Assembly: GCA_021324355.1 (NCBI GenBank)
Contig: JAJPJD010000061.1
Location: 1-41,124, forward strand
Direction: 5' to 3'
DNA: 41,124 nucleotides
Origin: Actinomycetota bacterium
GTDB taxonomy: Bacteria; Actinomycetota; Acidimicrobiia; Acidimicrobiales; RAAP-2
Of the stretch, positions 2,334 through 16,756 are shown one piece after another (within the stretch, counting starts at the first letter, position 1; each line of letters begins with the position of its first letter). The position numbers and the translations under genes were made by a program. The notes under the pieces are model-generated. The model worked only from the letters and a program-made list of their open reading frames with translations. It ran no database searches and was not told the origin of the DNA.

Positions 2334-3464
2334 GTGCAGCGCCCCAGGTACGATCCGCTCTCGGTGCCCGTCCCGGTGGTCCGGTCGACAAGCGCGTGGG
2401 AGACGCTGCGGTCGGAGGCCCTGTCCTGCACCCGCTGCCCGCTGGCCCGGGGCCGGACCCAGGTCGTCTTCGGGGTCGGGGACCCGAGCGCGGACCTCAT
2501 GTTCGTGGGCGAAGGGCCTGGCCGGGAGGAGGACCTGGCCGGCGAGCCGTTCGTCGGCCGCTCGGGGCAGCTGCTCGACCGGCTGCTGGCCGAGGAGCTG
2601 GGGATCGACCGGAGCCGCTGCTACATCGCCAACGTGGTCAAGTGCCGGCCGCCGGAGAACCGGGACCCGGCGCCCGACGAGATCGAGGCCTGCCGCCGGT
2701 ACCTCGAGGCCCAGATCGACCTGGTCGACCCGGTGGTGGTGGTGACCCTGGGCAACGTGGCCGCCCGGCTGCTCCTCGGGACCACCGCCGGCATCAAGGC
2801 GTTGCGGGGACGGGCCTACCCCTACCGCCGGGGCCACCTCGTGCCCACCTACCACCCGGCCTTCGCGCTGCGCTCGGGCGGCCAGGTGGTGGCCGAGATG
2901 CGGGCCGACCTGGTGCGGGCCAAGCACCTCTTGGGGGCTTCGCCCGGCCCCTGGACCCTGCGGGTCGAGAGCGACAGCCCGGCCGCCACCCGCGCGCTGG
3001 CGGCCGGGCTGGCCCAGGTCGTCCGGCCGGGCGACCTGGTCTTGGCGGTCGGGGGGCTCGGCGCCGGCAAGACGGTGTTCGCCCAGGGCTTCGGAGAAGG
3101 GCTCGGGGCCCGGGGCCCGGTGACCAGCCCGACCTTCACCCTGCTCCGGCAGTATCCGTGCCGGTCGGCGGGCGGGGTGGAGCTGTTCGCCCACGCCGAC
3201 CTGTACCGGCTGGACCGGCTGGTCGAGGTGGTCGACCTGGCCATCCCCGAGCTCCTGGCCGAGGGGGCGGTCGCGTTGGTCGAGTGGGGTGACGCCGGCG
3301 CGCCGGTGCTGGGCGACAGCGCGCTCGAGGTGGTGCTCGCGCCGGTCCCCGGCCAGCTCGACCGGCGGACCCTCGCCGTCTCGGGGCGGGGGCCGGCCTG
3401 GTCCGGACGCCGGGCCGAGGTCGAAGCGGCCCTCGGCGGCTCGCGCTCGGGGACGACGCGGTGA
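2334..3464 (+). CDS. Fusion: family 4-type uracil-DNA glycosylase + TsaE ATPase
   Basis: One uninterrupted 376-codon frame carries two enzymes. Residues about 22-202 are an iron-sulfur uracil-DNA glycosylase: cluster cysteines C32, C35, C103 and C120, the motif GEGPGREED (59-67), KCRPPENRDP, and the HPA-type motif at H174. Residues about 206-365 are TsaE, the ATPase of the t6A37 tRNA-modification complex: Walker A GGLGAGKT (240-247), TSPTFTL, HADLYRL and VEWGD. Both halves keep their key residues. The gene directly precedes tsaB (GTGA overlap), which fits TsaE. The GTG at 2334 is used as start; GTG 2364 is an in-frame alternative just behind a TACGAT box. No internal stop or slip site is seen at the junction. 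Confidence 0.88.
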   Translation: MQRPRYDPLSVPVPVVRSTSAWETLRSEALSCTRCPLARGRTQVVFGVGDPSADLMFVGEGPGREEDLAGEPFVGRSGQLLDRLLAEELGIDRSRCYIANVVKCRPPENRDPAPDEIEACRRYLEAQIDLVDPVVVVTLGNVAARLLLGTTAGIKALRGRAYPYRRGHLVPTYHPAFALRSGGQVVAEMRADLVRAKHLLGASPGPWTLRVESDSPAATRALAAGLAQVVRPGDLVLAVGGLGAGKTVFAQGFGEGLGARGPVTSPTFTLLRQYPCRSAGGVELFAHADLYRLDRLVEVVDLAIPELLAEGAVALVEWGDAGAPVLGDSALEVVLAPVPGQLDRRTLAVSGRGPAWSGRRAEVEAALGGSRSGTTR

Positions 3465-9215: not shown

Positions 9216-9688
9216 CCGGCCGGGGTGGTGAGCTCCCGCCACATCGCGATGTGCTCGACCCCCTCGGCCAGGAACACCTCCCCGGTGGCGGTGAAGCCGG
9301 CTCGCTCGTAGAAGGGGCGGGCGGCCGTGCGGGCGTTGCACCACACCAGCCGGCCGCCGGCCTGGGTCGCCAGCTCGAGGAGGGCGGCCAGGACGTGGCC
9401 ACCGTGGCCGCGGCCTCGCTCCTCAGCCACCGTGGCCATGCCCCGGATGCGCCAGGCGTCGGTCAGCGCCGGATCCCACGGCGGGGCTTCGGGGAGGAGG
9501 CTGCCCACCGAGACGACCCGGCCATCGATCACCACCGCCAGATGCCGGGCCCGGGGGTCCTCGTCGAACGGCAGCACGCTGGCGTCGGATGGCCGGCCCG
9601 GCCGAAGCACCTCGGCCCGCAGGGGCCGCACCACCTCGACCCCGACCGCTCTGGGAACCGGTGGTTCCCGGTCCGGCACTGGCGCCAC
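9212..9688 (-). CDS. GNAT family N-acetyltransferase
   Basis: The 158-residue protein has the GNAT core: HLAVVIDGRVVSVGSLLPE (beta strands), RIRGMATVAEERGRGHGGHVL as the acetyl-CoA loop (R/Q-x-x-G-x-G/A type), and ARPFYERAGFTATGEVF in the C-terminal half. The substrate is unknown. Three bases separate it from the TetR gene upstream on the same strand, so the two probably form one transcript. Confidence 0.85.
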   Translation of the reverse strand: MAPVPDREPPVPRAVGVEVVRPLRAEVLRPGRPSDASVLPFDEDPRARHLAVVIDGRVVSVGSLLPEAPPWDPALTDAWRIRGMATVAEERGRGHGGHVLAALLELATQAGGRLVWCNARTAARPFYERAGFTATGEVFLAEGVEHIAMWRELTTPAG

Positions 9689-9691
9689 CGC

Positions 9692-10378
9692 TCAGACCGC
9701 CGGACGCCCGAGCGGCTCGCCCGCTCCGCCGGGGCGCCGGGCGGTGCGGGCCGCCGCCCGGTCGGCCACTGCCAGGACCAGGTCCGCCGCCTCCTCGGCC
9801 AGCTGGTCGGGCCGCAGCGGGACCCGTCCGGCCAGCCAGTCGGCCAGCAGCTGGCCGACCCCGCCCACCAGCATCGAGGTCGCCGCCCAGCCGACCGGGT
9901 CGGGCCCGCCTCCCTGCCTGGCCGCCCCGTAGTGGGTGGCCGCTGCCACCACCGCAGAGGTGGTCTCGGCCCGGCGGCGCTCCAACGCCGGGATGCCGAG
10001 GGGGGCGTACAGCAGCCGGCCGCGGATCGGGTCCCGGGCGACGAAGGTGACGGTGCTGCGAACCACCGCGCCGACCTGGTCGGCCGGATCGGGCCCGGCG
10101 GCCGCCAGGGCGTCGCACACTGCGGCGCTCAGCTGTTCGAGTGCCCGGTCGTAGGCGGCCACCGCCAGTTCGTCGAGGTCGGCGAAGCTCTCGTAGAGGT
10201 AGCGGGGGTGGAGCCGGGCCCGCTCGAGCACCGCCCGGACGGTGAGGCCCTCCGGTCTGGCTGCCCCCAGCAGCCCGGAGGCCGCCTCCACCAGCAGCTC
10301 CCGGCGCTGGCGGCGGCGGACCTCGGAGGGCAGGCCGGTGAAGCGGCGGGGGGCACGGGCGAGCTCAGGGTTTGGCAA
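9692..10378 (-). CDS. TetR family transcriptional regulator
   Basis: The protein has 228 residues. The N-terminal helix-turn-helix is RRQRRELLVEAASGLLGA, then GLTVRAVLERARLHPRYLYESFADLDELA, the TetR pattern with the conserved tyrosine and phenylalanine of the recognition helix. The C-terminal ligand domain is divergent. The only usable start is TTG at 10378, because an in-frame TAA lies three codons upstream. That TTG lies inside an imperfect palindrome and 8 nt from a TAnnnT box. Divergence from the epoxide hydrolase operon suggests it controls that operon and itself. Confidence 0.9.
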   Translation of the reverse strand: MPNPELARAPRRFTGLPSEVRRRQRRELLVEAASGLLGAARPEGLTVRAVLERARLHPRYLYESFADLDELAVAAYDRALEQLSAAVCDALAAAGPDPADQVGAVVRSTVTFVARDPIRGRLLYAPLGIPALERRRAETTSAVVAAATHYGAARQGGGPDPVGWAATSMLVGGVGQLLADWLAGRVPLRPDQLAEEAADLVLAVADRAAARTARRPGGAGEPLGRPAV

Positions 10379-10389
10379 CGTGTGTTACC
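10374..10389. promoter_or_regulatory. Candidate TetR operator
   Basis: GGCAACGTGTGTTACC is an inverted repeat of 6-bp arms (GGCAAC / GTTACC, one mismatch) around a 4-bp centre. It covers the TetR start codon and touches the TetR -10. TetR regulators commonly bind such repeats in the divergent intergenic region. Confidence 0.5.
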
Positions 10390-10392
10390 TTA
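10387..10392 (-). promoter_or_regulatory. Candidate -10 element for the TetR gene
   Basis: On the minus strand this reads TAAGGT, with 8 nt to the TTG start, so the transcript would be leaderless. On the plus strand an overlapping TACCTT (10386-10391) could serve the divergent operon. Confidence 0.4.
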
Positions 10393-10453
10393 CTCCCGTG
10401 GGGGGTCAGCAGGCCTGGAGCGGGCGGGCAGCGGTCCCGGCCGGCGCCGCGCG

Positions 10454-11407
10454 GTGAGCGGACCGGCCGTCGAGCGCCGGGACGTCCGGCGCGACGGGGT
10501 GCGGCTGGCGGTCGAGGTGGCCGGCGAGGGCCCGGTGGTGGTCCTGGCCCACGGGTTCCCCGAGCTCGCCTTCTCCTGGCGCCACCAGGTCCCGGCCCTG
10601 GTCGAGGCCGGCTACACGGTGGCCACCCTCGACCAGCGGGGCTACGGCCGCTCCGAGCGGCCGGCGGCGATCGAGGCCTACGACGTCGTGCAGCTCGGCG
10701 CCGACCTCCTGGCGGTGCTGGACGAGCTGGGGGTGGCGCAGGGGTCCATCGTCGGCCACGACTGGGGGGCGGTGGTGGCCTGGCAGCTGGCCCTGCTCGC
10801 CCCGGACCGGGTGCGGGCGGTGGTCGGGATGAGCGTGCCGTTCCTGCCCCGCCCGTCGGTGCCCCCGCTGGCGCGGTTGGCGGAACGGTTCCGGGACCGG
10901 TTCTTCTACATCCTCTACTTCCAGGAGCCCGGGGTGGCCGACGCCGAGTTGGGCGCCGACCCGGCTCGCACGATGCGCATGCTGCTGGCCGGCCGACCGG
11001 TCGCCGGCCCGGCCGAGGGCGGGGGCTTCCTCGACCGGCTGGAGGAGCCGGCCGAGCTCCCCGGCTGGCTGTCCCAGGCCGAGCTGGACCACTACGTCGC
11101 CGAGTTCACCCGGACCGGGTTCACCGGCGGACTGAACTGGTACCGAAACCTGGACCGCAACTGGGCGCTGACCGCTCCGCTGGCCGGGGCCCACGTGCGG
11201 TGCCCGTCGCGTTTCATTGCCGGGGCCGCCGACCCAGTGCTCAGCTTCTCGCCGCCGGCTGCCGGCGCCGGGCTGCTCGACGACCACCGGGGCGACCTCC
11301 TGCTCGAGGGGGCTGGTCACTGGGTCCAGCAGGAGCGGCCGGCCGAGGTCAACGCCGCGCTGATCGAGTTCCTCGACGACGTGCACGACAGGAGGACCCC
11401 GTCATGA
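10454..11407 (+). CDS. Alpha/beta hydrolase, epoxide hydrolase type
   Basis: The 317-residue protein has the epoxide hydrolase marks: HGFPE oxyanion motif (33-37), nucleophile Asp103 in GHDWGA (aspartate rather than serine), acid Asp260 in AGAADPVLS, and His289 in GAGHWVQQE. A cap domain lies between. It would open an epoxide to a diol. The GTG at 10454 is the chosen start; an in-frame GTG at 10382 lies in the operator region. The stop overlaps the next ATG (ATGA). The monooxygenase next door would supply the epoxide; this pairing is inference. Confidence 0.9.
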   Translation: MSGPAVERRDVRRDGVRLAVEVAGEGPVVVLAHGFPELAFSWRHQVPALVEAGYTVATLDQRGYGRSERPAAIEAYDVVQLGADLLAVLDELGVAQGSIVGHDWGAVVAWQLALLAPDRVRAVVGMSVPFLPRPSVPPLARLAERFRDRFFYILYFQEPGVADAELGADPARTMRMLLAGRPVAGPAEGGGFLDRLEEPAELPGWLSQAELDHYVAEFTRTGFTGGLNWYRNLDRNWALTAPLAGAHVRCPSRFIAGAADPVLSFSPPAAGAGLLDDHRGDLLLEGAGHWVQQERPAEVNAALIEFLDDVHDRRTPS

Positions 11408-12597
11408 CCGACCCCCTGCGATTCGGGGTGTTCTACGCCCCGTTCCACCCCCTGGGCCAGAACCCTACGTTGGCGCTCGAGTACGACCTCGAACGGGTGG
11501 TGGCGCTGGACCGATTGGGCTTCGACGAGGCGTGGTTCGGGGAGCACCACTCGGGCGGGTACGAGATCATCGGTTGTCCAGAGATCTTCGTGGCCGCCGC
11601 GGCCGAGCGGACCAGGCACATCAAGCTGGGCACCGGCGTGGTCTCCCTCCCCTACCACCATCCCTGGTTGGTGGCCGACCGGATGGTCCTGCTCGACCAT
11701 TTGACTCGGGGCCGGGTCCTGTTCGGGACCGGCCCCGGGGCGCTGCCGAGCGATGCCTACGTCATGGGGATCGACCCGGTCGACCAGCGCCGACGGATGG
11801 AGGAGTCCCTCGAGGCGATCCTGGCCCTGCTGCGCTCCGAGGAGCCGGTCACCCGGGAGACCGACTGGTTCACCCTGCGGGAGGGCCGCCTGCAGCTGCG
11901 CCCCTACAGCCACCCCCACTTCGAGGTGGCGGTGGCCGCCATGGTCTCGCCGTCGGGTCCCCGGTTGGCCGGCCGCTACGGCGTGTCGCTGCTGTCGCTG
12001 TCGATGCAGGTGGTCGAGGGCGGGTTCGCGGCGGTCGAGTCGGCCTGGGGGGTGGTCGAGGAGCAGGCCCGGGCGGCTGGCCGGCCACCCCCGGACCGTT
12101 CGAGCTGGCGGGTCCTGGGGGCGCTGCACGTGGCAACGACCCGGGAGCAGGCGATCGAGGAGTGCACCTACGGCCTGGAGGACTTCTCCCGGTACTTCGG
12201 GACCGCCGGCTTCGTCCCCCTGGGCCAGCAGGTCGAGGGGGACGGTGACCCCCGAGCGCTGGTCGAGCGGTACGCGGCCAGCGGCAACGTGGTCATCGGC
12301 ACGCCCGACGACGCGATCTCCTACATCGAGCGGTTGCTCCAGGCCTCCGGCGGTTTCGGCACCTTCCTCCTGCTCGGCCACGACTGGGCGTCCCCGGAGG
12401 CCACCCTGCGCTCCTACCGCCTGTTCGCCCGGGAGGTGATCCCGTACTTCAAGGGCCAGCTGGGCGCGCCCCGGGCCTCGCACGACTGGGCGGCGTCCAA
12501 GCGCGACCAGCTGTTCGGCCGGGCCGGCCAGGCCATCATGAACGCCATCGCGAGCCACGTCGAGGAGCGGTCGGCCCGGACGACCGAGCAGCGGTAG
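11404..12597 (+). CDS. Luciferase-like (LLM class) flavin-dependent monooxygenase
   Basis: The 397-residue protein shows the bacterial luciferase fold: FGVFYAPFHP start, GFDEAWFGEHHSGGYEI, RHIKLGTGVVSLPYHHPW, DHLTRGRVLFGTGPGALPSDAY, and a C-terminal GTPDDAISYIERLL followed by a helical tail. Such enzymes use reduced FMN and O2. Length and motifs resemble limonene 1,2-monooxygenase-type members that make epoxides. It overlaps the epoxide hydrolase by 4 nt and is followed after 2 nt by an alcohol dehydrogenase. The exact substrate cannot be read from sequence, and no flavin reductase is nearby. Confidence 0.9.
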   Translation: MTDPLRFGVFYAPFHPLGQNPTLALEYDLERVVALDRLGFDEAWFGEHHSGGYEIIGCPEIFVAAAAERTRHIKLGTGVVSLPYHHPWLVADRMVLLDHLTRGRVLFGTGPGALPSDAYVMGIDPVDQRRRMEESLEAILALLRSEEPVTRETDWFTLREGRLQLRPYSHPHFEVAVAAMVSPSGPRLAGRYGVSLLSLSMQVVEGGFAAVESAWGVVEEQARAAGRPPPDRSSWRVLGALHVATTREQAIEECTYGLEDFSRYFGTAGFVPLGQQVEGDGDPRALVERYAASGNVVIGTPDDAISYIERLLQASGGFGTFLLLGHDWASPEATLRSYRLFAREVIPYFKGQLGAPRASHDWAASKRDQLFGRAGQAIMNAIASHVEERSARTTEQR

Positions 12598-12599
12598 CG

Positions 12600-13658
12600 A
12601 TGCGGGCGGCCGTGCTGCGGGCCGGTCGGATGGTGGTGCGCGACGACGTGCCCGAGCCGGTCCCGGGGCCGGGGCAGCTCTTGGTCCAGGTCCGGGCGTG
12701 CGGGATCTGCGGCTCCGATCTCCACTTCGCCCGGCACGGGGCGACCCTGGTCGAACTGGCGGCATCGATGCGGGGTGGGCCCACCCTGGGCGGGCGGGGG
12801 ATCGAGCTGTCCCGGGACGTCTTCATGGGCCACGAGTTCTGCACCGAGGTGCTCGAGCTCGGGCCGGGCACCGACGGGCCGCGCCCGGGGACCCTGGTGA
12901 CCTCGGTCCCGGTCCTGGCGGACGCAACCGGCGTGAGGGACCTGGCCTACTCCAACGACCTGCCGGCCGGGTACAGCGAGCGGATGCTGCTCTCGGCCGC
13001 CCTCGCGCAGCCGGTGCCGGCCGGGACCAGCGCCGAGCGGGCGGCGCTGACCGAGCCGATGGCGGTCGGGCTCCACGCGGTCAACCGGGCTGGCGTCGCC
13101 GCCGGGCAGGGCGCGGTGGTGATCGGCTGCGGGCCGGTCGGCATCGCGGTGCTGGCCTGGTTGGCGGTGATCGGGGCCGAGCCGGTGGTGGCGGCGGACT
13201 TCTCGCCGCTGCGCCGGGACCTCGCCCGCCAGATGGGGGCCCACCAGGTGGTGGACCCGGCGGCCACCGACGTCTTCGACGCCTTCGCGGCCGCCGGTGG
13301 CGGCCCCTCGCCGGTGGTGTTCGAGGCGGTCGGGGTCGAAGGGGTGATCGACGAGATCCTGCGCTCGGCCCCTCCCCGGTCCCGGCTGGCGGTGGTGGGG
13401 GTCTGCATGGGCCGGGACCGGTTCACCCCGTTCTACGGCATCGCCAAGGAGCTCTCGGTGGTGTTCTGCTTCGGCTACGACCTCGAGGAGTTCGCCGAGG
13501 CCCTGCGGGCCATCGCAGACGGCCGCCTCGATCCGGGCCCGATGATCACCGGCCGGGTGCCCCTGGACCAGGTCGCGGCGGCCTTCGACGACCTGGCACG
13601 CCCCCAGGGCCACTGCAAGATCCTGGTCACCGCTGACCGGCCGGCTGTGCCAGGCTGA
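12600..13658 (+). CDS. Zinc-dependent alcohol dehydrogenase (MDR family)
   Basis: The 352-residue protein is a medium-chain dehydrogenase. Catalytic zinc ligands are C37 (CGICGSD) and H78 with E79 (FMGHEF). The Rossmann glycine motif is GCGPVG. The usual four-cysteine structural-zinc lobe is missing: the segment after GHEF runs to SVPVLADATG with no CxxCxxC cluster. It begins 2 nt after the monooxygenase stop, so it probably oxidises an alcohol or diol made by the two upstream enzymes (inference). Confidence 0.9.
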   Translation: MRAAVLRAGRMVVRDDVPEPVPGPGQLLVQVRACGICGSDLHFARHGATLVELAASMRGGPTLGGRGIELSRDVFMGHEFCTEVLELGPGTDGPRPGTLVTSVPVLADATGVRDLAYSNDLPAGYSERMLLSAALAQPVPAGTSAERAALTEPMAVGLHAVNRAGVAAGQGAVVIGCGPVGIAVLAWLAVIGAEPVVAADFSPLRRDLARQMGAHQVVDPAATDVFDAFAAAGGGPSPVVFEAVGVEGVIDEILRSAPPRSRLAVVGVCMGRDRFTPFYGIAKELSVVFCFGYDLEEFAEALRAIADGRLDPGPMITGRVPLDQVAAAFDDLARPQGHCKILVTADRPAVPG

Positions 13659-13692
13659 GCCCCAGCCCCGGGGAGGGGACCGCGGAGCGGAG

Positions 13693-14583
13693 GTGGCGGT
13701 GCGCAGGGCGCTCGTGCTGAGTGGTGGTGGGTCGGTCGGGATCGCCTGGCAGAGCGGTCTGGCGGCCGGGTTGCGCCGGGGAGGGGTCGACCTCATGGCG
13801 GCCGACCAGATCGTGGGGACCTCGGCCGGCTCAGCGGTCGGTGCCCAGCTGGCCTTGGGGCGGGATCCCGAGGACCAGCTGGCCCGCTACCGCCGGGCGG
13901 AGCCACAGCCGCCCGCCCCCTCCACCGCCAGCGGGGCGATGGCGGAGCGGATGGCTCGGTTCATGGCGATCATGGCCGAGGTCGCCGACGCCTCGCCGCA
14001 GGAGCGCCGGGCCCGGATCGGGCAGTTCGCCTTGGAGGCCGATGCCATGGCCGAGGAGGAGTTCGTGGCCCTGTTCTCCTACCTGAAGGGGGAGCCGTGG
14101 CCCCGCCGGTTCTCGTGCACCGCGGTGGACGCCGCCACCGGGGTGTTCCAGGTGTGGGACGAGTTGAGCGGGGTCGAGCTCGACCGGGCCGTCGCCTCCA
14201 GCTGCGCGGTGCCCGGGCTGTTCTCCCCGGTCACCATCGCTGGGCGGCGGTACATGGACGGGGGGATGCGCTCGGGGACCAATGCCGACCTGGCGGCCGG
14301 GTGCGACCGGGTGCTGGTGGTGTCCTTGCTGGACCCCTCCCGGCTCCCGGCGGGGGACCCCCGCGCGGCTCGCTACCTCGAGACCACCCAGGCCGAGCTG
14401 GCCGGGCTGGCCGACGCCGGGGCCGCCGTCCAGGTGCTCGCGCCCGACGACGCTGCGGCCGCGGTGCTGGGGGTGAACCTGATGGACGCCTCCAGGGCTC
14501 CGGCGGCCGCGCTCGAGGGGCTGCGGCAGGGCCAGGAGGCGGCCGGCCAGCTGGGGCCGTTCTGGCACCCCGGGAGCGACTGA
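13693..14583 (+). CDS. Patatin-like phospholipase
   Basis: The 296-residue protein has the glycine-rich oxyanion loop LSGGGSVGIAW (9-19), nucleophile Ser44 in VGTSAGS, and Asp189 in YMDGG, together the Ser-Asp dyad of bacterial patatins. It would hydrolyse acyl esters, probably lipids. GTG 13693 is used as start; GTG 13699 is a close alternative. It lies 34 nt after the alcohol dehydrogenase and may be part of that operon. Its role in the cassette is unclear. Confidence 0.9.
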   Translation: MAVRRALVLSGGGSVGIAWQSGLAAGLRRGGVDLMAADQIVGTSAGSAVGAQLALGRDPEDQLARYRRAEPQPPAPSTASGAMAERMARFMAIMAEVADASPQERRARIGQFALEADAMAEEEFVALFSYLKGEPWPRRFSCTAVDAATGVFQVWDELSGVELDRAVASSCAVPGLFSPVTIAGRRYMDGGMRSGTNADLAAGCDRVLVVSLLDPSRLPAGDPRAARYLETTQAELAGLADAGAAVQVLAPDDAAAAVLGVNLMDASRAPAAALEGLRQGQEAAGQLGPFWHPGSD

Positions 14584-14595
14584 GGCCCCTCGGGC

Positions 14596-15600
14596 ATGGC
14601 CGACGAACCGGTCGTCCGGGCCCGGCGGTTCCTTGGGCTGGTGGCAGCCCGACTGGTCGCGCTGGAGGGGGCCGGGGCCCGTCGTTCGCCGGGGGAGTCC
14701 CGGGTGCTGGCCGAGATCGGGCCGACCGGGTGCCAGCTCCGGGCCCTCCGCCGACGCCTCGGCCTGGATGCCGGCTACCTGAGCCGACTGCTGCGGTCCC
14801 TCGAGGGCGCCGGCCTGGTCACGGTGGGCCCCGACACCACCGACCGCCGCGCCAAGCGGGTCCGGCCGACCCGGGCCGGCCGGGCCGAGCAGCGGGCGCT
14901 GGCGCAGCGGGCCGCCCGGGCCATGACCGCGCTCCTCGAACCGCTCGACGAAGGCCAGCGGGCGCAGCTGCTCGGGGCGGTGACCGAGGTGGCCCGCCTG
15001 GTGGTCCAGCCAGCGGTGGTGCTGGACGCGGTCCGGCCCTCGGCGCCGCCGGCCCGATGGTGCCTCGAGCGCTACACCGAGGAGCTGGCCGACCGGCTGC
15101 CCGGAGGCTTCGACCGTGCCCGTGCCCGGCCCCTCGAGCCGCGGGACCTGGTCCCGCCGGCCGGGGTGTTGGTGCTGGCCAGCCTGTGGGGCGACCCGGT
15201 GGGCTGCGGCGGCCTGCGGCTGCACCGGGATCGCACCGCGGAGATCAAGCGGATGTGGGTCGCCCCGGCCGTGCGGGGCCTGGGGGTGGGGCGGCGCCTC
15301 CTCGACGAGCTCGAGGCCCGGGCGGCCGCCGCCGGGGTCCGGGTCGTGCGCCTGGACACCCACTCGGCGCTGGCCGAGGCGGTCCAGCTGTATCGACGCT
15401 CGGGCTACCAGCCGGTGCCACCGTTCAACGACGAGGTGCACGCCGACCTGTGGTTCGAGAAGGCTCTGGCGGTGCGGGGGCCAGACGGTATGGTGGGCTC
15501 GGTGTCGCAGGTCGCAGGGTCGGCTCGACTGAGGTCGCCGTCGGAGACTCCCCCGGCGCGCCGGGGCGGGAGCAGAGCCGGAGGGCAATCGAGTGGCTGA
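14596..15600 (+). CDS. MarR-type HTH domain fused to GNAT acetyltransferase
   Basis: The frame encodes 334 residues. About 1-140 form a MarR winged helix: CQLRALRRRLGLDAGYLSRLLRSLEGAGLV, then TDRRAKRVRPT as the wing. About 150-291 form a GNAT: IKRMWVAPAVRGLGVGRRLLDELEARA (acetyl-CoA loop) and AVQLYRRSGYQPVPPFND, ending HADLWFEKAL. MarR-GNAT fusions are a known bacterial type. The last 43 residues (292-334) are Gly/Ser/Arg-rich, do not belong to the GNAT fold and run into the guaB3 start (8-nt overlap, GTGGCTGA). The tail may be genuine or may reflect a lost stop codon. Confidence 0.88.
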   Translation: MADEPVVRARRFLGLVAARLVALEGAGARRSPGESRVLAEIGPTGCQLRALRRRLGLDAGYLSRLLRSLEGAGLVTVGPDTTDRRAKRVRPTRAGRAEQRALAQRAARAMTALLEPLDEGQRAQLLGAVTEVARLVVQPAVVLDAVRPSAPPARWCLERYTEELADRLPGGFDRARARPLEPRDLVPPAGVLVLASLWGDPVGCGGLRLHRDRTAEIKRMWVAPAVRGLGVGRRLLDELEARAAAAGVRVVRLDTHSALAEAVQLYRRSGYQPVPPFNDEVHADLWFEKALAVRGPDGMVGSVSQVAGSARLRSPSETPPARRGGSRAGGQSSG

Positions 15601-16756
15601 GATCGAGATCGGCATCTTCAAGTCGGGCCGGCAGGCGTACGGTTTCGACGACATCGCCATCGTCCCGTCGAGGCGGACCCGCGACCCCGAGGACGTGGAC
15701 ATCAGCTGGGACATCGACGCCTACCACTTCGACCTCCCGCTGCTCGGGGCGGGCATGGACGGCGTCACCTCGCCGGCCACCGCCATCGAGCTGGGCCGCC
15801 TCGGCGGCCTGGGCGTCCTCAACCTCGAGGGGCTGTGGACCCGCTACGAGGACCCGCTCCCGCTGTTCGAGGAGATCCGGGAGCTCGACGACGACAAGGC
15901 CACCGCCCGGATGCAGCAGATGTATGCCGAGCCCATCAAGCTCGAGCTGGTCACCGAGCGGATCCGCCAGGTGAAGGAGGCCGGGGTGACCGCCGCCGCC
16001 TCGGTCACCCCGCAACGGACCATCGAGCTGGCCCCGGCGGTGCTCGAGGCCGAGCTGGACATCCTGGTGATCCAGGGAACGGTGGTCTCGGCCGAGCACG
16101 TCTCCAAGACGGTCGAGCCGCTCAACCTCAAGCGGTTCATCCGAGAGTTCGACCTGCCGGTGATCGTGGGTGGCTGTGCCTCCTACCAGGCTGGGCTCCA
16201 CCTGATGCGCACCGGCGCGGTCGGGGTGCTGGTCGGGGTGGGGCCGGGGAACGCCTGCACCACCCGGGGGGTGCTCGGGATCGGCGTCCCCCAGGCCACT
16301 GCGATCGCCGACGTGGCCGGCGCCCGCATGCGCCACCTGGACGAGACCGGGGTCTACGTGCACGTGATCGCCGACGGCGGGATGAGCAAGGGCGGCGACA
16401 TCGCCAAGGCCATCGCCTGCGGGGCCGACGCGGTCATGCTCGGCTCGCCGCTCTCCTCGGCCGTCGAGGCCCCGGCCCGGGGGTTCCACTGGGGCATGGC
16501 CACCTTCCACCCGACCCTGCCGCGGGGGACCCGGGTCCGCACCGGGGTGCGGGGGACCCTGAAGGAGATCCTGCTCGGCCCGGCCCACGAGAACGACGGC
16601 AGGATGAACCTGTTCGGCGCGCTCCGCACGGCGATGGCCACGTGCGGGTACGAGACCCTGAAGGAGTTCCAGAAGGCGGAAGTCATGGTGGCCCCGTCCC
16701 TGCAGACCGAGGGCAAGCAGCTCCAGCGGTCCCAGGGCGTCGGCATGGGCCATTGA
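15593..16756 (+). CDS. guaB3: GuaB3-family IMP dehydrogenase-related protein
   Basis: The 387-residue TIM-barrel protein matches the actinobacterial GuaB3 group: [20 protein letters not shown] at the start, [12 protein letters not shown], and the loop [10 protein letters not shown] with the catalytic-type Cys222, then [16 protein letters not shown]. No CBS domains are inserted, unlike classical IMPDH of about 500 residues. Members have been linked to IMP dehydrogenase-like or GMP reductase-like reactions, and the activity cannot be settled here. The GTG start overlaps the preceding gene by 8 nt and the stop overlaps guaA by 4 nt, so it is tied to GMP synthesis. Confidence 0.93.

What the first reader, a model, noticed from the sequence alone, without database searches (positions are those of the whole stretch)
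10374..14583. Monooxygenase / epoxide hydrolase / alcohol dehydrogenase / patatin cassette under a divergent TetR
A luciferase-like monooxygenase of the limonene-monooxygenase style overlaps an aspartate-nucleophile epoxide hydrolase and is followed by a Zn dehydrogenase. This reads as olefin to epoxide to diol to ketone. It is the only clearly accessory block in a core-gene window. The combination with a patatin lipase suggests a lipid- or terpenoid-ester substrate and a pathway not obviously described.
Basis: inference. Interest (0 to 1): 0.55.

Follow-up and report, generated by a model that had tools for sequence, protein, structure and literature searches.

The report
Flavin monooxygenase–epoxide hydrolase–dehydrogenase operon
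An actinobacterium carries a small gene cluster that probably turns a carbon–carbon double bond of an unknown compound into an epoxide, then a diol, then a ketone; its core gene set recurs in many actinobacteria, including mycobacteria, and its natural substrate is not known.

Summary
An EphA-type epoxide hydrolase (EH), a LimB/MmyO-like luciferase-family monooxygenase (LLM), a diol-dehydrogenase-like Zn enzyme (ADH) and a patatin lie head to tail (gaps -4, +2, +34), divergent from a TetR-like gene whose TTG start sits inside a conserved palindrome. The core is EH-LLM-ADH: among the best 80 homologous loci EH stands beside LLM in 77 of the 79 with room for it, and ADH in 72 of 80, from Acidimicrobiia through Pseudonocardiaceae to mycobacteria. 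Patatin is a local add-on (5 of 7 genus genomes; 2 of those 80 loci). In Mycobacterium tuberculosis the EH-LLM pair is annotated as ephA-Rv3618. Relatives carry a further gene between TetR and EH that resembles the polyether epoxidases MonCI/LasC; it is absent from the window and broken in one sister genome. It ties the locus to epoxide chemistry independently of the LLM. Best reading: olefin to epoxide to vicinal diol to ketol, working like limonene limB-limA-limC but with unrelated hydrolase and dehydrogenase. Substrate and activity are unproven; a Baeyer-Villiger or F420-dependent LLM is not excluded. A new variant of a known kind, of moderate interest, mainly as a testable route to EphA's unknown substrate.

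The parts
9692..10378 (-). TetR-like regulator, divergent, TTG start inside the palindrome
   Evidence: ORF; weak profile hits; homologues beside the operon in 12 of 80 related loci; one search shows 21 rows, the window included, of which 3 repeat a genome
10374..10389 (.). palindrome GGCAACGTGTGTTACC, probable TetR operator overlapping the TetR start codon
   Evidence: TTGGCAAC-N4-GT[TGA][AG]CC at the TetR start in 20 of 21 rows (17 of 18 distinct genomes, exception L042); one place in own genome for GGYAACNNNNGTTRCC, reversed-pattern control also one; the exact 16-mer once in each of 6 of 6 genus relatives
10454..11407 (+). EphA-type alpha/beta-hydrolase epoxide hydrolase
   Evidence: D103, Y152, Y230, D260, H289 identical in 89 of 89 aligned EH sequences (L040, cut by a stop, had been dropped by the length filter)
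11404..12597 (+). luciferase-like monooxygenase of LimB/MmyO type, presumed epoxidase
12600..13658 (+). Zn-dependent medium-chain dehydrogenase, (R,R)-butanediol/sorbitol dehydrogenase-like
   Evidence: C37, H78-E79 and E152 kept in at least 97% of 84 aligned sequences
13693..14583 (+). patatin-like serine hydrolase, lineage-specific add-on
   Evidence: GTSAG at residue 42, DGG at 189; 5 of 7 genus genomes, 2 of 80 related loci

Best explanation
A TetR-controlled catabolic or detoxification operon for an olefinic hydrophobic compound. The LLM, with reduced flavin from a reductase encoded elsewhere, epoxidises a C=C bond (inferred). The EphA-type enzyme opens the epoxide through a covalent Asp103 ester to a vicinal diol (family chemistry; residues shown). 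The butanediol-dehydrogenase-like enzyme oxidises the diol to a ketol (inferred). The patatin is an optional extra esterase. TetR binds the palindrome that contains its own start codon and is released by substrate or product (inferred). It works like limonene limB-limA-limC, with a non-homologous hydrolase and dehydrogenase, and is the relative of the mycobacterial ephA-Rv3618 pair.
For: Conserved, closely packed gene order EH-LLM-ADH; a second lineage keeps the three genes in another order, ADH-LLM-EH (L133, L134, L140; L016). EH catalytic residues identical in 89 of 89 aligned sequences, and M. thermoresistibile EphA is an active EH (abstract and passages of PMC7538969). The LLM is close to LimB-like and MmyO-like proteins; MmyO with MmyF epoxidises methylenomycin C in vivo with O from O2 (passages of PMC12593393). 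Relatives carry a MonCI/LasC-like gene between TetR and EH (phmmer E 4.2e-12; profile E 3.4e-21), and MonCI is described as an epoxidase (abstract of PMC10560226). ADH nearest solved relatives are butanediol and sorbitol dehydrogenases.
Against: No activity data for this LLM clade came to light. Its best solved relative by sequence profile and by Foldseek is a type II Baeyer-Villiger monooxygenase. No flavin reductase in the cluster: two PF01613 genes lie elsewhere in the genome. 8 of 80 related loci lack the ADH and 2 of the 79 with room lack the EH; in L040 the EH gene is cut by a stop right after the nucleophile. The tree puts the trio LLMs apart from LimB and MmyO, with weak support for the split (80/52), so the substrate may be quite different. 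The MonCI-like gene could be the real epoxide source in the ancestral operon.
Confidence: 0.58

Rival explanations
1. The LLM is a type II Baeyer-Villiger monooxygenase acting after the dehydrogenase: diol to ketol to ester or lactone, which a serine hydrolase then opens; the epoxide comes from elsewhere (ancestrally from the MonCI-like enzyme).
For: Best solved relative is 3,6-diketocamphane 1,6-monooxygenase by profile (E 9.5e-31) and Foldseek. MonCI-like gene present in relatives. A serine hydrolase is attached in two lineages: patatin here, PF00144 in L134.
Against: LimB-like and MmyO-like proteins are closer (46.0% and 42.7%) than 3,6-DKCMO (26%). The MonCI-like gene is missing from the window and broken in G006 while EH-LLM-ADH stays, and no second source of epoxide is then seen.
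Confidence: 0.2
2. The LLM is an F420-dependent oxidoreductase and the operon is redox metabolism without epoxidation; the EH merely removes stray epoxides.
For: NCBIfam's top hit is F420_Rv2161c, under its cut-off (83.7 against 166.9 bits). An RHA1 plasmid homologue lies near F420 biosynthesis genes, though also next to a flavin reductase.
Against: The first 13 Foldseek rows and first 12 VIA-align rows are non-F420 monooxygenases or luciferases, although the VIA Z-scores at the border (29.5 and 28.9) are tied. Homologues at 45.7-47.3% lie near flavin reductase genes (L112, L116, L121). MmyO needs a flavin reductase (passages of PMC12593393).
Confidence: 0.12
3. The operon makes or tailors a secondary metabolite (like methylenomycin or polyether epoxidation) rather than degrading a compound.
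For: The nearest studied epoxidases, MmyO and MonCI/LasC, are biosynthetic.
Against: No polyketide, peptide or terpene synthase among the window proteins scanned (8, 10). The locus sits beside GroES, GroEL and a NUDIX gene. An AMP-binding ligase gene lies downstream in L134.
Confidence: 0.1

Closest known systems
Mycobacterial ephA (Rv3617)-Rv3618 pair
   Same: EH followed by LLM in the same order; the mycobacterial LLMs are 68-72% identical to the window's and most lie in this order; in M. tuberculosis annotated as probable epoxide hydrolase and possible monooxygenase (table in PMC7825740)
   Different: In the M. tuberculosis table Rv3618 is followed by esxV, not by an ADH. The palindrome was not found in up to 2,500 bp upstream of EH in 61 of 61 mycobacterial loci, against 14 of 17 others with it. 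The mycobacterial locus L050 lies beside ftsH, the window's beside groEL and NUDIX. Orthology to Rv3618 itself is inferred from gene order, not measured
Limonene limA-limB-limC cluster of Rhodococcus (L118, R. qingshengii)
   Same: LimB-type LLM next to an epoxide hydrolase and a dehydrogenase; LimB-LimA chemistry as in passages of PMC7794910
   Different: [quoted passage not shown] here an alpha/beta hydrolase and a Zn medium-chain enzyme stand in their places; LLM 46.0% identical
MmyO/MmyF methylenomycin epoxidase
   Same: LLM family, 42.7% over aligned columns; in vivo epoxidation (passages of PMC12593393)
   Different: biosynthetic cluster, flavin reductase in the described cluster, no EH in the stretch seen
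MonCI / LasC (Lsd18) polyether epoxidases
   Same: the extra gene of related operons matches them over most of its length
   Different: that gene is missing from the window; best own-genome match only 22 bits

Membership tests
LimB/MmyO-type LLM epoxidase | luciferase-like TIM-barrel monooxygenase | tested here: met
   PF00296 137 bits; model pLDDT 79.2, Foldseek E 6.4e-23 to 4uwm
LimB/MmyO-type LLM epoxidase | sequence closer to LimB/MmyO than to other LLM classes | tested here: met
   46.0% and 42.7% against 33.1% for an LLM from another cluster (L114) and 26% for 3,6-DKCMO; L118 and L115 were named from their neighbours, not by accession
LimB/MmyO-type LLM epoxidase | uses reduced FMN/FAD from a separate reductase | tested here: inconclusive
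   no reductase in the cluster; two PF01613 genes elsewhere; fold rows favour flavin enzymes but border rows tie
LimB/MmyO-type LLM epoxidase | epoxidation of an olefin | not testable with these tools
   needs enzyme assay
EphA-type epoxide hydrolase | HGXP, Asp nucleophile, two cap tyrosines, Asp-His relay | tested here: met
   H33-G34-x-P36, D103, Y152, Y230, D260, H289, identical in 89 of 89 aligned sequences; the role of each residue is assigned from family knowledge and PMC7538969 passages
EphA-type epoxide hydrolase | closest solved relative is EphA | tested here: met
   382.7 bits to 5cw2 against 232.7 for the next
EphA-type epoxide hydrolase | epoxide hydrolase activity | not testable with these tools
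   needs enzyme assay
limABC limonene operon | epoxide hydrolase of the LEH family | tested here: not met
   the window EH is an alpha/beta hydrolase
limABC limonene operon | LimC-type dehydrogenase | tested here: not met
   the window enzyme is a Zn medium-chain dehydrogenase; that LimC is a short-chain enzyme is recalled
ephA-Rv3618-type EH-LLM pair | EH immediately before LLM, same strand, overlapping or nearly so | tested here: met
   overlap of 4 bp in the window; 77 of 79 loci with room hold the EH
MonCI/LasC-type flavin epoxidase | gene present in the window | tested here: not met
   75 bp between TetR and EH; own genome best 22 bits
type II Baeyer-Villiger monooxygenase | ketone to ester activity | not testable with these tools
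   nearest solved structure only
patatin-like hydrolase | GxSxG nucleophile and DGG | tested here: met

The most novel reading that the evidence does not exclude
A so far undescribed, widespread actinobacterial olefin-oxidation operon in which one EphA-type hydrolase serves a dedicated partner flavin monooxygenase (LimB type) and, ancestrally, a second unrelated flavin epoxidase (MonCI type). The natural substrate of mycobacterial EphA is then the product of its neighbour (Rv3618 type), and the mycobacterial pair is a reduced form of this larger operon. The MonCI-type gene is being lost repeatedly (absent in the window, broken in G006, truncated in L043) while the trio remains.
Probability: 0.4. 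Interest if true: 0.6.

Novelty: new variant of a known kind. Interest (0 to 1): 0.4.

Why it matters
The substrate specificity of mycobacterial epoxide hydrolases is stated to be unknown (passage of PMC7538969). If EphA's partner is the flavin monooxygenase next door, the question becomes a defined coupled assay, and an operon from Acidimicrobiia or Pseudonocardia with its own regulator and operator offers a way in without a listed germ. The trio would also be a self-contained olefin-to-ketol cassette for biocatalysis.

Tried and rejected
Rejected: patatin as part of the conserved core. Rejected: the operon is unique to this organism. Thought less likely, not excluded: the LLM as a sulfonate or related sulfur monooxygenase; such enzymes come from rank 30 on in the VIA rows, and NtaA/DmoA scores 32.7 bits against a cut-off of 279.7. 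Not settled from structure: FMN against F420, and epoxidase against Baeyer-Villiger; the model has pLDDT 79 and low-confidence loops, and a shared fold shows no function.

Led nowhere: promoter/terminator scan (0 promoter-like sites; 1 terminator-like against 1.0 expected, inside the EH gene). The first operator scan upstream of EH (6 of 90 loci) was flawed, since it measured from guessed ORF starts and used only 400 bp, missing for example L055; one search repeats it from the match start with up to 2,500 bp: 0 of 61 mycobacterial loci, 14 of 17 others. The degenerate palindrome also has one further place in 4 of 6 genus relatives (G001, G002, G004, G006), so a second target there is possible; these places were not examined.

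Errors of mine: the EH was given with a start one base off (wrong frame) and gave nothing; corrected. The simple gene picker picks wrong frames in places; the neighbours named here rest on tblastn or Pfam. Selection: the 80 loci are the best 80 of 226, 64 of them mycobacterial; the tree kept 12 of those mycobacterial loci (56 of 106 distinct LLMs). In one search the EH rows needed more than 250 residues, which dropped L040.
Full report
What is there. Between groES-groEL-NUDIX and a MarR-GNAT/IMPDH-like pair the window holds GNAT and TetR-like genes on the minus strand and EH, LLM, ADH and patatin on the plus strand. Spacings are -4, +2 and +34 bp, and 75 bp separate TetR from EH. GC3 is uniform (0.92-0.95) over the five genes, and window GC shows no break there. 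Nothing marks the block as recently foreign.

The enzymes. EH: best solved relative M. thermoresistibile EphA at 382.7 bits. HGFP, D103, Y152, Y230, D260 and H289 are present; the catalytic residues are identical in 89 of 89 aligned sequences (some genomes twice, and L040, cut by a stop right after the nucleophile, dropped). LLM: PF00296. By sequence profile the nearest solved structures are 3,6-diketocamphane monooxygenase, luciferases and other non-F420 monooxygenases, with F420 enzymes lower. An AlphaFold2 model (pLDDT 79.2, pTM 0.78) gives much the same order, with the caution that VIA rows 12 and 13 tie. ADH: butanediol and sorbitol dehydrogenase relatives, with C37, H78-E79 and E152 conserved in at least 97% of 84 aligned sequences. 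Patatin: GTSAG and DGG.

Relation to LimB and MmyO. A plasmid search found full-length LLMs at 43.6-50.8% identity in its first 19 rows. One (L118, R. qingshengii) lies between a limonene-1,2-epoxide-hydrolase-family gene and limC, so it is taken as LimB. Another (L115, S. anthocyanicus) lies in a cluster with AvrD-like, ACP and KSIII genes, so it is taken as MmyO (MmyD-AvrD similarity from PMC12593393 passages). Both names are inferences from neighbours. Identities to the window LLM over aligned columns are 46.0% and 42.7%. In the tree the trio LLMs, apart from the second lineage below, form a group of 33 rows with weak support (80/52), apart from LimB and MmyO. So the enzyme is of that type, not shown to be an orthologue of either. 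The paper on MmyO shows in vivo epoxidation with 18O from O2 and a need for a flavin reductase (passages).

Synteny. Of the best 80 of 226 homologous loci, 64 are mycobacterial. EH stands beside LLM in 77 of the 79 with room and ADH in 72 of 80; TetR was scored in 12, a MonCI-like gene in 8, patatin in 2. Missing EH: L048, L056; missing ADH: L045, L046, L048, L049, L052, L053, L056, L107. All 7 genomes of the genus, own included, have EH-LLM-ADH; patatin is in 5 of 7 (not G001, G002). In a wider set of 61 relatives, LLM matches of 72% or more were in 10 of 61. A distinct lineage (L133, L134, L140; L016) has ADH-LLM-EH, in L134 followed by a PF00144 serine hydrolase and an AMP-binding ligase. 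Less similar LLMs (L135-L139, L141, L142; 56-63% identical) showed no EH or ADH homologue in the stretches held, and the plasmid LLMs (L110-L123) none of the EH.

The lost epoxidase. In many Acidimicrobiia relatives a further gene stands between TetR and EH. Its best solved relatives are MonCI and LasC/Lsd18 by single sequence (E 4.2e-12 and 3.8e-9) and by a 7-sequence profile (E 3.4e-21 and 2.6e-17). MonCI is described as an epoxidase (abstract of PMC10560226). The gene appears whole in G001, G002 and G004 and nearly so in G003, at a contig end (434 residues matched). It matches in two pieces in G005. It is a broken remnant in G006 and only an N-terminal piece in L043. It is absent from the window, with 75 bp left, and the own genome's best match is 22 bits. 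The window, L030 (the G003 contig, by length) and L125 (G006) form one group in the tree, with L030 and L125 sisters, so at least two losses are likely. No such gene was scored in the Pseudonocardiaceae or mycobacterial loci. This gene ties the locus to epoxide chemistry independently of the LLM, but it also leaves room for the view that it, and not the LLM, made the epoxide in the ancestral operon.

Regulation. TTGGCAAC-N4-GT[TGA][AG]CC lies across the TTG start of the TetR gene in 20 of 21 rows (17 of 18 distinct genomes; exception L042), in some with a second, similar palindrome shortly downstream. In the own genome GGYAACNNNNGTTRCC has one place, the same number as the reversed-pattern control, so uniqueness alone proves little. 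The exact 16-mer is kept once in each of 6 of 6 genus relatives; 4 of those 6 have one further place for the degenerate pattern, and their controls are 0. A local autoregulator is the natural reading. A site within four mismatches lies in up to 2,500 bp upstream of EH in 14 of 17 non-mycobacterial loci and 0 of 61 mycobacterial ones, so mycobacteria control the genes otherwise.

Mycobacteria. ephA and Rv3618 are adjacent in M. tuberculosis, annotated probable epoxide hydrolase and possible monooxygenase (table, PMC7825740). In M. decipiens they are next to a further oxidoreductase gene (passage of PMC11237670), which may be the ADH of the trio (inference). Rv3618 was proposed as specific to the carbon-starved phenotype in one proteomic study (passages of PMC12090744). 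The upstream neighbour in L050 is FtsH. The searches showed me no function or substrate for the pair; most listed papers were not opened.

Verdict. Shown: gene content, order, conservation, catalytic residues, palindrome conservation, presence and loss of the MonCI-like gene. Inferred: epoxidation by the LLM, reaction order, co-transcription, ligand, substrate. Works like limB-limA-limC: likely. Member of limABC: no (EH and dehydrogenase families differ). Member of the EphA-Rv3618-type pair: yes by gene order and homology.

Noticed in passing
window 14596-15600: MarR-type winged helix fused to a GNAT acetyltransferase in one ORF, overlapping the IMPDH-like gene 15593-16756 by 8 bp.
   Followed up: no
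window 2334-3464: One 376-aa ORF carries a uracil-DNA-glycosylase domain (46-182) and a TsaE domain (214-335); possibly a fusion.
   Followed up: no
L134 300-6894 (also L133, L140, L016): Second lineage of the trio in order ADH-LLM-EH; in L134 followed by a PF00144 serine hydrolase and an AMP-binding ligase, hinting at acid activation after ketol cleavage.
   Followed up: partly
L125 about 9687-10411; L043 6560-6991: Broken or truncated MonCI-like genes between TetR and EH, or upstream of EH, with EH-LLM-ADH still present.
   Followed up: yes
L040 7033-7980: The EH gene of Saccharopolyspora sp. HNM0986 is cut by a stop codon directly after the nucleophile Asp; real decay or a sequence error.
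   Followed up: partly
L100 and L103: Mycobacterium palustre carries two copies of the EH-LLM-ADH trio on one contig.
   Followed up: no
L116: Streptomyces plasmid stretch with a LimB/MmyO-type LLM near flavin reductase, arylamine N-acetyltransferase-like and acyltransferase genes; looks like a biosynthetic cluster.
   Followed up: no
G001:C32, G002:C70, G004:C86, G006:C35: One further place each for the degenerate palindrome away from the operon.
   Followed up: no
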